From NCBI RefSeq assembly GCF_002994745.2, contig NC_037088.1:63196397-63260396 (forward strand): a stretch of 64,000 nucleotides of DNA. The letters are read 5' to 3'. Origin of the DNA: Rosa chinensis. Lineage: Eukaryota > Streptophyta > Magnoliopsida > Rosales > Rosaceae. Of the stretch, positions 37,549 to 43,148 are shown one piece after another; within the stretch, counting starts at the first letter, position 1; the number at the start of each line of letters is the position of its first letter. A model generated the notes under the pieces. The model worked only from the letters and a program-made list of their open reading frames with translations, was not told where the DNA came from and did no database searches. The position numbers and the translations under genes are program-made.

Positions 37549-40500
37549 ATGGCCGCTTCTTCTTCTTCTTCGTCTTCTGCAGCTGTCGGTCGTTGGAACT
37601 ACGATGTCTTCATCAGTTTTAGAGGCGATGACACTCGCAAGATCTTTGTCGGCCATCTCTACAAAGCTCTCCATCAGAAAGCAATCAACACCTTCATCGA
37701 TTCCGACGAGCTTAGAAACGGTAACAACCCTTCAGAGCTTCTGGAAGCCATCGCCGACTCGAGGCTTTCCGTTGTGGTGTTCTCTAAACACTATGCTTCT
37801 TCCGAGTGGTGCCTCAGAGAGCTGGTCAAGATCGTCGAGTGCATGAAAACGATGAAGCAGATTGTGGTGCCCGTTTTCTACGAACTTGATAGTTCCGATA
37901 TTCGGAAACTCAAGGCGAGTTTTGAGCAAGCTTTTGCTGAACATTTGCATGATTCTAATGCCGATGTGGAAGAGGTGCAGAGGTGGAAGTCTGCTCTAGT
38001 TGAGGCCTCCAATTTATCTGGCTGGGATTCAAGAAATTATGAGTAAACATTTCTTTCATATATACTTTTTTTCTGTCTAATGAAATTGTTAGAACAAAAA
38101 GTTTTTTCCTTTATAATAAGGGTTGAATAATTAAGCTGGGTTTTATGTTTTTTTTTTACCATACGCTAATCAATTGGATTTCATGACAATTAAACTGGGT
38201 TTCAAGATTCTGATCAGTTGATTGTATATATATGGATCATACTGTAAATTAACAAAGGCTACTAGGATATTAAAAGATTCCTGATTTTGGTCCGAACACA
38301 TATAGTTTCAAGTTGTCGATTTATGTTTTCTTAGTATCAGTATGATATTAGTACATTAGCTCTTGCTCTGGACTTACAAAAAGAAAATTTATGTATTATT
38401 TTTCTTTTCTTTTTCTTAAAATATGGCAGGGATGACGCCAAGCTTATTGAGAAAATAGTCGGTGATATTTCTAAAAGATTGATCCGCGTCTCATCCGGTA
38501 TAGACAATGTTTTGGTTGGAATGGATAAGCACATTGCAGAAATAGATGTACTATTATGTCTGGGGGTGGATGATGTTCGTGGTATTGGAATATTCGGAAT
38601 GCCTGGTATAGGTAAAACAACCATTGCTCGAGCTGTTTATGATGAAATCACTTGTCAGTTTGAACACTATTGCTTTCTTGAAAATGTCAAAGATGGTTTC
38701 AAGAATAAAGGTGCTGTACATATGCAGGAAGAACTTCTATCTAGAATCTTGAAGAAAAAGGTGTGTACCTTAGGTAATTTGAATACAGGCTTCAAGATGG
38801 TTATGGAAAGGCTGAATAAGAAAAGAGTTTTGCTTGTTCTTGATGATGTGGAAAATTTTTCCCAAATTGAAGCCTTACTCGGAAAGCAATGTTCATTTGG
38901 TGGTGGAAGTAGAATCATTATAACAACTAGAGATATGCAATCACTAAGTGGAGTGCAGGAGAGATATAATCCCAAATTTTTAAGTGATGATGAAGATCTT
39001 GAGCTTTTTATGCAGTATGCGTTCAGAACACACCAACCCACAGGAGATTACGATTCTCTCTCAAGGCTTGCCATAGAATATGCTCAAGGTCTGCCTTTAG
39101 GACTTAAAGTTTTGGGAGCTTTTCTTGATAGCAAAAGTGCATGTGAATGGGAAGATGAGCTAGAAAGAATAAAGAAAATCCCACACATAGAAATTCAGGG
39201 TCTGCTTAGAACAAGCTTTGATGGACTCGATCCTTTACAAAAGGATATATTTCTAGATATTGCATGCTTCTTCAGAGGAATGAACAAAGGATATGTAACA
39301 AAAGTTCTGGAAAGTTGTGGTTTTTACCCCCATAGTGGATTACGAGTACTACTCGATAGAGCTCTCATCACGATCTCAGATGACAATAGGCTCGAAATGC
39401 ATGATTTACTACAAGAAATAGGTTGGGAAATCGTCCGACGACAATCAATTAAAGAACCTGGGAAGCGCAGTAGGTTGTGGGTTTATGAAGATGTCGATCA
39501 TGTGTTCACTCAAAATACGGTGAGATATTTGATCATGACCTCTAACTCCTCTTCATATCAGTACCTACATTTAGTGGAAACCTTTAACTTTGAACAAAAC
39601 CCCATTTATGGGAAACATGTACTACCTTTATAATTTTAGATAAGTTTATGGGTATTTTCACTCATGTAATTTCCACTATGCTTATCCAGGCTACAGATGC
39701 AGTTGAGGGCATAATGCTTGACTTGTCAAGATCAAAAGAGGTATACTTAGCTTCCGAAGCTTTTGTTAAAATGACGAGGCTGAGACTGCTAAGAATTATC
39801 AGTAATAACCATTCACGTCAGGATTTATGTCATCCAAGTGATGACACTCAACAACATCTGAGTGGCGACTTCAAGTTTCTTTCTAATGAGTTGAGGATTC
39901 TCCACTGGCATGGATTCCCCTTAAAGTCTTTGCCATCCAATTTTATCCCGAAGAATCTTGTTGAACTTGACATGCGTTCTAGTCACATTGAACAACTGTG
40001 GGAAGGAATCAAGGTATCATTTTCCTTTAAAATGTCAGCATGAAGTTTTAGATGCATTATGCATGTTATCTAATGCATGTTATCCTTGTTGTTTTGACAT
40101 GCAGCCTCTGAAAAAGTTGACAATTATTAATCTAAGTCACTCTCAATACCTTAAGAAAATACCTGACTTCACTGAGGCGATGAATATGAAGAAACTAATT
40201 CTTGATGGTTGTTCAAGTTTATTGGAGGTTCATCCGTCCATTTCAGCTCTTAAAAACCTTGTTGTCCTGAGTCTAAAAGGGTGCAAAGCAGTTCAGAGTC
40301 TTCCGGGTAGCATTTACATGAAATCTCTTAAGACCCTTGATCTTTCTGGTTGCTCAAATCTTAAGATGTTTCCAGAGATCTCAGGAATTATGGAGGACCT
40401 ATCAGAGCTTTATTTAAATGAGACTGCAATTGAAAAATTACCGTCATCGATTGAACAGCTTCAGGGGCTTGTGTTATTGAATATGGCAGACTGCAGAAGC

Positions 40501-41134
40501 CTTGTCTGTCTTCCAGACAACATCTGTAATTTGGCATACCTTACAAATCTCACTCTCTCTGGGTGCTCAAAACTTTATCGTTTGCCTGAGAACTTGGGGA
40601 ATTTAGAATCCTTGATGATCCTTGAAATAGAAAGAAGTGGTATAAAAGAACTCCCTTTTTCGATCTTACGTGTGAATCAGCTTAAAAGATTATCATGTGA
40701 TGGATGTAAAGAAATGATGGTGCCCCTTTCATCATGGTCATCATCAATCAAAGGATATTATACTTACTCTGGTATGCTACATCTTGATTTAAATGACTGC
40801 AATCTGATGGTATTATCAGATGGAATTGCTCATTTGTCCTCATTAAGAACATTAGAGCTGCGCAGAAACAACTTGGAGAGCTTACCTGCAGCAATGAATC
40901 GACTTCGTCGTTTATCACATCTTGAATTAGAAGCATGCAAGAGATTGAAATCAATACCTGAGCTTTCATCAAGTATTAGTTACATAGATGCACATGATTG
41001 CACAGCTTTGGAAACGGTTTCAACACCAAAACCTCGCTCTTCTACAAATCTTTGCTTCACATTTTCAAATTGCCTCCAGCTGATACAAACCAATCTATTC
41101 AGGGATATTGTGGAAACTTATTCCCATTATCAGG

Positions 41135-41193
<59 letters not shown>

Positions 41194-43148
41194 TTCTCAC
41201 TCTGTTAAACTTTAAACAAATACATTGACACAACACTAACATTTACAAACAAAAAGTTAACGCAAAAGAAGTACTTAAACATTGTTATGTTTTTTTCTTG
41301 TCTAGGGTAGCTATCTACGACCTCTCTCCTTTAGTATGTCACTTCCTGGAAGTGAAATTCCTCATTGGTTCAACCATCAGTGTAAGGGATTCTTAGTGAA
41401 TGTGCAGCTACCACAGAATTGGTTTGATGATAAGTTTTTGGGATTTGCTATATGCGGTGTTAGTAACTTCAAGGGTGCCCATAATGATGCATCCGATCTA
41501 TCTGCTGTTTGTTTTTGTACCTTCAAAGGAAATCATGGAGAGTACAAGTTCAGTTTTCATTTGCTTGATTGGGGTTTCAGAACAAACAGATTCCTCCAGT
41601 CAGATCACATGTTCCTGGGATATGTGCCATGGTCGCAATATCGCTTCAGTGATGGAGGAAAGCCGGTCAATGAACGCTACTACACTGAAGCCACATTTGA
41701 GATTTTGGTAGAAAATGGAGTCTATGCACATGATGATTACAGGACAGTAATACGACGGCATTGCATCACAAGTTGCGGAGTGCGTTTGTTTCATGGTAAT
41801 TACATGGAACCGCAAAATCTAAGCATCACTCAGCCTAATTCTCATCATGATAGCAGTGAAATCCTATTGGACACTGCGAGGAAGAGAAAGAGAGAAATAG
41901 CAGGGGTGAAAATGCAGTGGAAGTGGCCTCCCGCAGAAGAGGTGTTCACTGAGCAAGAGCAAGAAGGATCCCTATCAAGGGAAGGGTCCCTGGTGGGGGA
42001 AGGGTCCTCCGCGGGCAAGAGGTCCTCGGCGGGGGAAGGGGTTCTTTCTATCCTTTCTTCAGTAGCAACAGTAGAAAGTGGTGCCAATGAGTATGCTTCC
42101 GTCCCCCTCCGATTTTTGTCTAAATTATATTTTGAATAATGTGTCCCATACAACTTGCATTTCTTCCCATAACTTTTGATTGTGTGTTGGCAGACGTGAT
42201 GGTCCAACTATCCCTAATCGTACTAACAGAAGAAGGCGCACAAATTTGCGAAATTCGGCAACGTGGATACGGGATACAAATCAACTTATTGATGACGGCC
42301 ATGCTTGGAGAAAGTATGGCCAAAAGGAGATACTTGGATCCAGATATCCCAGGTATTTAGGACATTTTTATCATATCAAATTTAGCTATGTTTCTTGAAT
42401 TTGAGGCAATATACTACTACAATCTGATGCGACTGTTGTCTATGACCTCTAATTGTCTGGAAGCAGATCCCTTTCTCTTTAAAGTATGCCTTTTTTTTCT
42501 TTCTTTAATACTCATAAGATCAAATAGTAGCAAACAAAGAAGTGGAGACTGAAGAGTTCAAACCCAGAGCCTCTTGCAAACAAGGCTATGGTGCCATGTT
42601 AGATAACTATGGGCTGAAAAGCTTTTGTTGTCCGGGAATTGGTCAGCAATGTATTTTAACCCAACTACTTTGAACTCACCCTTTTTGAAATCTTTATTAA
42701 ACACCGCATTGTACAAGCTAGAATATCCTGGACATACAAGGAATATAAGTTTTGGACTACAATTAAATACAGCAAGGATATTTATCAGACAATAAAGGAA
42801 CTTAATTTTGACCTGTAATTCACTACTTTCCTTTTCTTTCCGTTTGGATGAAGTAGCTCATCTTTTATCATTAGGAAATAAAACCATGGTATCCTTGAAG
42901 ATAATGTCACCCAAAGTCGAGATTTAAAAAGTCAAAATATTTCTTTCTTCCCATAACATTAGATTATTTTTGTTGGCAGAAACTATTACAGATGCACTTA
43001 TCGAATGGATCAAGGCTGTATGGCCACAAAGCACGTGCAACGCATCAGTGACGAGCCAGTATTATATAGAACTACTTACAGAGGAAATCACACATGCAGA
43101 CCCGTCTCCAGCACACAGGACATAGAAGAGTTCTATTTGGCATATTAA
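37549..43148 (+). CDS. TNL-4: intact TIR-NB-ARC-LRR-C-JID-WRKY receptor, 1349 aa (RRS1-like architecture)
   Basis: Seven exons, all GT-AG and in phase (1350 codons with stop): 37549-38042 TIR; 38430-39519 NB-ARC; 39690-40013; 40105-41133 LRR; 41306-42090 C-JID and linker; 42194-42352 and 42980-43148 WRKY. The TIR has YDVFISFRGDDTRK and Glu91 in WCLREL. The NB-ARC has GMPGIGKTT (Lys227), LVLDDV (Asp303-304), GLPLGLKVLG and MHD at 488-490. The C-JID starts near LPGSEIPHWF. A linker with basic clusters RKRKR (1171-1175) and RRRR (1253-1256) leads to a WRKY domain, WRKYGQK at 1279-1285, and 16 residues after it the protein stops. This is the domain order of Arabidopsis RRS1, where the WRKY acts as an integrated bait for effectors; the same role here is inference. 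MAASS at 37549 was chosen as the start because it aligns with the paralogues. An in-frame ATG at 37489 would add 20 residues. Confidence 0.9.
41138..41193 (+). repeat. (CT)n(AC)n compound microsatellite at the start of TNL-4 intron 4
   Basis: The LRR exon ends CAG at 41133. The intron starts GTTCC, then CT repeats to 41170, then AC repeats to 41193. Retention of this intron would read Ser-Leu and Thr-His repeats and stop at 41206-41208, removing the C-JID and WRKY domains. Confidence 0.9.
42285..43097 (+). other. Group III WRKY domain encoded by exons 6-7 of TNL-4
   Basis: Exon 6 supplies DDGHAWRKYGQKEILGSRYP. The intron splits the following Arg codon (AG|A), the conserved intron place of many WRKY domains. 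Exon 7 supplies NYYRC, with zinc ligands Cys1299, Cys1307, His1331 and Cys1333, spaced C-x7-C-x23-H-x-C. That spacing is the group III signature. The DNA-binding heptapeptide is unchanged and both splice sites are good (AG|GTATTT and GGCAG|A). No stop or frameshift was found. Confidence 0.93.

What the first reader, a model, noticed from the sequence alone, without database searches (positions are those of the whole stretch)
37549..43148. An intact TNL with an integrated group III WRKY domain (RRS1-like)
Exons 6 and 7 of TNL-4 join in frame to the C-JID exon and encode an unbroken WRKY domain with C-x7-C-x23-H-x-C. The domain order equals that of Arabidopsis RRS1, where the WRKY is an integrated bait for bacterial effectors. 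None of the five neighbouring TNLs shows a WRKY or a WRKY relic, so this domain was gained by one copy or lost cleanly by the others. The protein stops 16 residues after the last zinc ligand.
Basis: partly seen in the sequence, partly recalled or inferred. Interest (0 to 1): 0.92.

Follow-up and report, generated by a model that had tools for sequence, protein, structure and literature searches.

The report
Rose immune receptor carrying WRKY bait
This rose gene encodes an intact plant immune receptor with a WRKY transcription-factor domain fused to its tail, probably as bait for pathogen proteins; such fusions are already known in rose and strawberry, but this one seems to come from a rose-family WRKY70 gene and, unlike Arabidopsis RRS1, keeps its own signalling parts.

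Summary
Seven GT-AG exons (37549-43148) give one open 1349-residue protein, TIR-NB-ARC-LRR-C-JID-WRKY, with an intact group III WRKY domain, letter for letter an annotated Rosa chinensis protein. A search with this WRKY found no second copy in the window.

Its TIR matches Roq1 (151 bits) and RPS4 (88) far better than RRS1 (23), keeps the catalytic glutamate that RRS1 lacks, and no head-to-head TNL lies in the window. The WRKY looks WRKY70-like, though other origins are not excluded statistically. It is no single-copy novelty: relatives with it occur in Argentina and Fragaria, and 16 of the 120 listed relatives carry WRKY domains, all from Rosa, Fragaria, Argentina or Rubus. The kind is in print: class RW2 of strawberry and WRKY-bearing rose TNLs.

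New detail: intact executor motifs beside a WRKY70-like bait that kept an intron after YPR, and a linker shared with a Rubus relative carrying a B3 domain. New member of a known kind.

The parts
37549..38042 (+). exon 1, TIR domain; catalytic Glu at residue 91 (WCLREL)
   Evidence: Pfam TIR E 1e-51; alignments to Roq1, RPV1 and RUN1 TIRs and motif position
38430..39519 (+). exon 2, NB-ARC and winged helix; P-loop GMPGIGKT 221-228, MHD 488-490
39690..40013 (+). exon 3, pre-LRR and first LRR
40105..41133 (+). exon 4, LRRs
41306..42090 (+). exon 5, C-JID (residues 992-1143) and linker with basic stretch RKRKRE (1171-1176); the frame runs on to a stop ending at 42139 if intron 5 is kept
   Evidence: Pfam C-JID 1.8e-19
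42091..42193 (+). intron 5 (103 bases), phase 2; junction after residues ...VESGANE
42194..42352 (+). exon 6, basic stretch RRRR (1253-1256) and first half of the WRKY domain with WRKYGQK, ending ...SRYPR
42353..42979 (+). intron 6 (627 bases) right after YPR, where WRKY genes carry their conserved PR intron
   Evidence: position; the term 'conserved PR intron' from PMC4350883 passages; its exact site in WRKY genes is recalled
42980..43148 (+). exon 7, zinc-finger half of the WRKY domain, 16-residue tail and stop

Best explanation
The locus encodes a nucleotide-binding immune receptor (TNL) of Rosa chinensis whose C-terminal WRKY domain is an integrated bait, most likely for pathogen effectors that bind or modify group III WRKY factors of the WRKY70 kind. 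Shown here: gene model, intact domains, strong conservation of the WRKY with Argentina, closest similarity of the WRKY to WRKY70-like factors of Rosa and Fragaria, and an intron kept right after YPR, which points to capture of genomic exons rather than of a cDNA. Inferred: an effector binds the beta2-beta3 face (Y1282, K1285, E1286, R1294, Y1296, R1298), which frees the receptor from self-inhibition and lets it assemble through its intact P-loop, MHD and C-JID parts into a Roq1-type complex whose TIR hydrolyses NAD+ through Glu91. Sensor and executor would thus sit in one protein, unlike RRS1, which needs RPS4.
For: Intact model, identical to an annotated protein. Domains. WRKY is the best conserved region against the Argentina protein: 63 of 66 identical, against TIR 111 of 161, NB-ARC 204 of 251, winged helix 84 of 94, LRR 381 of 426, C-JID exon 152 of 170, linker 87 of 110. 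The motif KHVQRI-x-DEP of this WRKY occurs in 4 of 120 listed standalone WRKYs, and these four are from Rosa and Fragaria. Five of the six RRS1 residues named as contacting AvrRps4 are identical here and the sixth is Asp to Glu, a backbone contact in RRS1. The TIR motif with the catalytic Glu is found in 15 of the 16 listed TNL-WRKYs; the 16th model (P0164) starts behind the TIR; RRS1 lacks the Glu (PMC7282519 passage).
Against: No expression, binding or phenotype data for this gene. The contact residues Y, K, R, Y, R are the same in 118 of 120 standalone WRKYs, so they show an undamaged WRKY rather than a tuned bait; an intact DNA-binding face also fits a DNA-binding role. A partner NLR outside the window cannot be excluded. 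The Fragaria x ananassa model P0007 lacks the zinc-finger half (40 of 66 identical), although this looks like a predicted intron inside exon 7 rather than damage. The WRKY70 origin is not statistically fixed.
Confidence: 0.6

Rival explanations
1. Sensor half of a pair, as RRS1 is for RPS4: the WRKY-bearing TNL holds a partner TNL in check and the partner signals.
For: Paired NLRs typically have an integrated domain in one member (PMC9528088 passages); a strawberry GWAS paper points to pairing for TNL-WRKY proteins (PMC12911263 passage). Other TNLs lie next to it in tandem; a head-to-tail pair exists (RPP2A/RPP2B, table seen).
Against: All matches of this TNL in the window are on one strand, none divergent (E up to 1e-3); TIR Glu, P-loop and MHD are intact here, whereas RRS1 lacks the Glu and its P-loop is dispensable.
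Confidence: 0.22
2. The WRKY acts as a DNA-binding or nuclear-targeting part that links receptor activation to defence-gene promoters.
For: WRKYGQK and zinc ligands intact; basic stretches at 1171 and 1253; 7 of 14 TNL-WRKY domains typed keep the residues shared by DNA and effector binding.
Against: In the other 7 of 14 these residues are changed (fixed offsets; 3 of the 7 have an extra residue), so DNA binding is not kept across the family; the function shown for such a domain, in RRS1, is effector binding (PMC8685902 passages).
Confidence: 0.13
3. Not a stable fusion: transcripts end in exon 5 (stop at 42139 when intron 5 is kept) or the WRKY exons are a separate or dead transcript.
For: Exon 5 stays open for 49 bases past the donor, stop included; no RNA data seen.
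Against: Annotated proteins of the same structure in R. chinensis and A. anserina; the WRKY is the most conserved region; no stop or frameshift in exons 6-7.
Confidence: 0.05

Closest known systems
RW2 class of R protein-WRKY genes (FvRWRKY1-5, Fragaria vesca; Rinerson et al. 2015, PMC4350883)
   [quoted passage not shown] four F. vesca TNL-WRKY proteins are among my 120 listed relatives
   Different: This gene and its Argentina relative have one intact WRKY70-like domain; several others have two, with changed WRKY motifs. Matching a particular FvRWRKY number was not possible.
WRKY-bearing RcTNLs of Rosa chinensis (PMC10045381)
   Same: Three of 96 RcTNLs carry a WRKY and the paper already proposes bait (passages); three R. 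chinensis TNL-WRKYs are also among my 120 listed relatives
   Different: The passages do not tie a number to this gene; whether it is RcTNL23, the pathogen-induced one, is unknown
Arabidopsis RRS1-RPS4
   Same: TIR-NB-LRR-WRKY(III) order; same WRKY contact positions; short tail as in RRS1-S (16 residues here, about 20 there)
   Different: TIR only remotely alike, catalytic Glu present, C-JID intact (degenerate in RRS1), no head-to-head TNL in the window, WRKY nearer to WRKY70-like factors
Roq1 / RPP1 resistosome TNLs
   Same: Best PDB matches to the whole protein (Roq1 E 9e-204, residues 10-830); TIR, NB-ARC and C-JID present here
   Different: No WRKY domain (recalled)

Membership tests
[quoted passage not shown]
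[quoted passage not shown]
RRS1 orthologue | TIR related to RRS1 TIR | tested here: not met
   22.9 bits to 4c6t_A against 151 to Roq1 and 88 to RPS4
RRS1 orthologue | TIR without catalytic glutamate | tested here: not met
   WCLREL, E91; RRS1 loss from PMC7282519 passage
RRS1 orthologue | head-to-head RPS4-like partner | tested here: inconclusive
   none within the 64 kb window; beyond it not seen
RRS1 orthologue | WRKY domain closest to RRS1 WRKY | tested here: inconclusive
   not grouped with it in the tree, but a clade with RRS1 not rejected, p-AU 0.20
Functional integrated decoy | domain of an effector target kept intact in the receptor | tested here: met
Functional integrated decoy | effector binding to the domain triggers immunity | not testable with these tools
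   needs binding and cell-death assays

The most novel reading that the evidence does not exclude
A Rosoideae TNL lineage has a fixed docking site, a phase-2 splice donor behind the C-JID and linker, at which exons for different transcription-factor DNA-binding domains (WRKY70-like here, other group III WRKY types in Rosa and Fragaria paralogues, a B3 domain in Rubus) have been plugged in or exchanged, onto a receptor that keeps its own NADase and is thus sensor and executor in one. If so, these are natural single-protein examples of bait exchange on a working TNL.
Probability: 0.3. Interest if true: 0.65.

Novelty: new member of a known kind. Interest (0 to 1): 0.38.

Why it matters
If the bait reading holds, the gene points to the host factor under attack in roses and strawberries (a WRKY70-like regulator) and gives a way to fish for the effectors. 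If it works without a partner, it would be simpler to transfer or to re-bait than the RRS1-RPS4 pair. A strawberry GWAS region for crown rot resistance holds a WRKY-bearing TNL, Fxa7Bg202672 (PMC12911263 passage); whether it is the orthologue was not tested.

Tried and rejected
Rejected: WRKY relics in the neighbours. The only linker-like stretch, in TNL-3 (33960-34028, E 0.74), lies in another frame than the TNL-3 reading frame; its counterpart is in frame in TNL-1, whose annotated protein P0147 did not stand out against this linker (42 of 500 shuffles as high; P0142 of TNL-3 19 of 500). Rejected: a broken Fragaria protein as proof of loss. The odd tail of P0007 (GYPSPAYRTQKSS...) is matched, with substitutions, by splicing 82 bases (43018-43099) out of the Rosa exon 7 (GYPSPAHRT, then a stop in Rosa), so a predicted or alternative intron explains it; no Fragaria DNA was seen.

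Weakened: separate captures of WRKY domains. The first tree (71 rows, 57 columns) put this WRKY in a starred group with Rosa and Fragaria WRKY70-like proteins (6 rows, 97/87); a second tree without five partial or long rows (66 rows, 57 columns) did not recover that group. Tests of one origin gave p-AU 0.13 (the 14 TNL-WRKY domains used), 0.065 (the six of the 10-row clade) and 0.40 (this pair with P0140 and P0133): none rejected. Rows: 47 of the 120 listed standalone proteins were chosen by hand, 45 used (P0099 and P0104 fell out by pattern); P0007 was left out as truncated; WRKY pieces of TNLs with i-E above 1e-6 were left out, P0197 entirely. Names such as WRKY70- or WRKY53/41-like for subtypes rest on source names and recall.

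Weakened: the docking site. The linker match to Rubus P0132 is strong (score 107, 0 of 500 shuffles as high), but P0200, P0136, P0138 and P0140 do not stand out (72, 144, 42 and 103 of 500) and P0133 only weakly (2 of 500). The WRKY remnant ahead of the B3 domain in P0132 is seen by eye and by one pairwise alignment only: neither Pfam (E up to 0.01) nor my WRKY profile (E up to 1) reports it.

Backbone tree: 16 WRKY-bearing and 29 other proteins chosen from the 120 listed of 782 hits, plus window TNL-2; TNL-1 and TNL-3 stand in as P0147 and P0142; TNL-5 and TNL-6 left out, as no C-JID match to this protein was found in them. Nothing found: tRNAs, Rfam families. Two paper searches with Rubus or Potentilla terms found no paper. 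No structure was predicted.
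Full report
What is there. The window is Rosa chinensis: the spliced product of the finding is letter for letter the annotated protein P0002. Seven exons with GT-AG borders give 1349 residues without an internal stop. Pfam finds TIR, NB-ARC, winged helix, LRRs, C-JID (992-1143) and WRKY (1274-1333, E 2.7e-24). The WRKY has WRKYGQK at 1279-1285, ligands C1299, C1307, H1331 and C1333, and a 16-residue tail.

Surroundings. tblastn with this protein finds TNL-1 (from 4621), TNL-2 (20686), TNL-3 (28600), TNL-5 (46160) and TNL-6 (50559), all on the + strand. TNL-6 has a second NB-ARC unit in the same frame as LRRs ahead of it. 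With this WRKY as query, nothing in the window besides exons 6 and 7 scores better than E 1.9.

Relatives. A search restricted to residues 1240-1349, among proteins of 0.55 to 1.75 times the length, gave 8 proteins including the gene's own; the close ones are Argentina anserina P0003 and Fragaria x ananassa P0007. A search with residues 600-1349 gave 782 proteins, of which the best 120 are listed; 16 of the 120 carry a WRKY domain, and all 16 are named as Rosa, Fragaria, Argentina or Rubus. NCBI places R. chinensis, A. anserina and Rubus argutus in Rosoideae (the place of Fragaria is recalled). Ten of the 16 show a second WRKY-like piece in my profile search at i-E 0.002 or better, most with changed WRKY motifs; this gene and the Argentina one show a single, intact domain.

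Backbone history. A tree of NB-ARC, winged-helix and C-JID columns (46 rows, 509 columns) puts this gene with P0003 and P0007 (100/100), inside a 10-row clade (99/98) that also holds four other WRKY-bearing proteins (P0133, P0136, P0138, P0140), the Rubus protein P0132, a shorter R. chinensis protein P0149 and the WRKY-less Fragaria protein P0200. TNL-2 and the annotated forms of TNL-1 and TNL-3 lie in another clade without WRKY (7 rows, 100/99). If the three close proteins are orthologues, the fusion is older than the Rosa-Fragaria-Argentina split, and the window neighbours placed are not its nearest kin.

Origin of the WRKY. Standalone WRKYs nearest to it are mostly named WRKY70-like; the first hit is from R. 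chinensis (P0010, 68% over 74%, best 120 of 152 listed). The motif KHVQRI-x-DEP is found in 4 of the 120: P0010 of Rosa, P0015 and P0019 of F. vesca and P0021 of F. x ananassa (the list was itself selected by likeness to this domain). One tree puts the domain with those four (97/87); a second with fewer rows does not, and tests reject neither one origin of the 14 TNL-WRKY domains used (p-AU 0.13) nor a clade with RRS1 (0.20). A WRKY70-type donor is therefore likely but not proved, and the number of captures is open. The intron after YPR stands where WRKY genes have their PR intron (term in PMC4350883 passages; exact site recalled), which speaks for capture of genomic exons.

The junction. Rubus P0132 shares this gene's linker up to the exon 5/6 junction (score 107, 0 of 500 shuffles as high) and further on has a B3 domain at 1205-1305 (E 1.1e-8). 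Between them a pairwise alignment shows a short, weak WRKY-like stretch (DDGFSRRKNGQ) that neither Pfam nor my profile reports. Other members of the clade do not show the linker clearly. This is the ground for the docking-site idea, given only as the novel case.

How it probably works. In RRS1 the beta2-beta3 face of the WRKY binds AvrRps4 through Tyr1218, Lys1221, Asp1222 (backbone), Arg1230, Tyr1232 and Arg1234 (PMC8685902 passages). The same positions here are Y1282, K1285, E1286, R1294, Y1296 and R1298. Five of six are identical, but Y, K, R, Y, R are shared by 118 of 120 standalone WRKYs, so this shows an unspoilt WRKY surface, as a bait or a DNA binder would need. At fixed offsets, one domain each of 14 of the 16 TNL-WRKYs (P0197 and P0208 not typed), 7 keep these residues and 7 do not. 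The WRKY is the best conserved part against Argentina (63 of 66). Against P0007 it is 40 of 66, because that model replaces the zinc-finger half; a like tail arises from the Rosa DNA if 82 bases of exon 7 are treated as an intron.

Why not simply RRS1. The TIR scores 151 bits to Roq1, 88 to RPS4 and 23 to RRS1. RRS1 TIR lacks the catalytic glutamate (PMC7282519 passage). Here it is present at residue 91 by alignment to RUN1, as the motif is in 15 of the 16 TNL-WRKYs. P-loop and MHD are intact here. By regular expression the P-loop was found in 14 of 16; P0007 reads GTPGIGKT and was missed by the pattern, and P0164 lacks the region. RRS1 has a degenerate post-LRR domain and sits head to head with RPS4 (PMC9528088 passages); here the C-JID passes Pfam's cut-off and no divergent TNL lies in the window. 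I infer a receptor that can both sense and signal, at about 0.6 for the whole reading.

What is in print. Rinerson et al. 2015 (PMC4350883; [quoted passage not shown] Sarris et al. 2016 (PMC4759884; passages) found recurrent NLR-WRKY fusions, including the WRKY54/70 group in cacao. The rose TNL survey (PMC10045381; passages) reports WRKY in three of 96 RcTNLs, suggests bait, and finds the WRKY-bearing RcTNL23 induced by three fungi; I could not link that number to this gene. A 2026 strawberry GWAS names a WRKY-bearing TNL in a crown rot region (PMC12911263; passages). Two rose WRKY surveys (PMC11054901, PMC6882016; passages for TNL terms) gave nothing on this gene. The finding is thus a member of a known kind; I saw passages only, none of these papers whole.

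Noticed in passing
53334-55793: One open frame carries LRRs of one TNL followed by NB-ARC and winged helix of a second: a head-to-tail NLR fusion or a missed gene border (TNL-6).
   Followed up: partly
46118-48993: TNL-5 looks broken: NB-ARC matches in shifted, overlapping frames and no C-JID match.
   Followed up: no
23012-24108: TNL-2 LRR region lies in two overlapping frames, so a frameshift or a missed exon border.
   Followed up: no
41137-41193: CT then CA microsatellite directly behind the exon 4 donor.
   Followed up: no
41306-42139: Exon 5 stays open past its donor; keeping intron 5 would give a WRKY-less receptor ending ...ANEYASVPLRFLSKLYFE.
   Followed up: partly
43018-43099: Possible 82-base GT-AG intron inside exon 7 that would remove the zinc finger; the annotated Fragaria protein P0007 appears to use it.
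   Followed up: partly
12280-13890: Reverse transcriptase of the copia type (Pfam RVT_2) on the minus strand between TNL-1 and TNL-2.
   Followed up: no
1516-3843: Single-frame subtilase gene (I9, S8, PA, fn3) beside the TNL cluster.
   Followed up: no
61286-62428: Part of a glycosyltransferase family 64 gene at the right end of the cluster.
   Followed up: no
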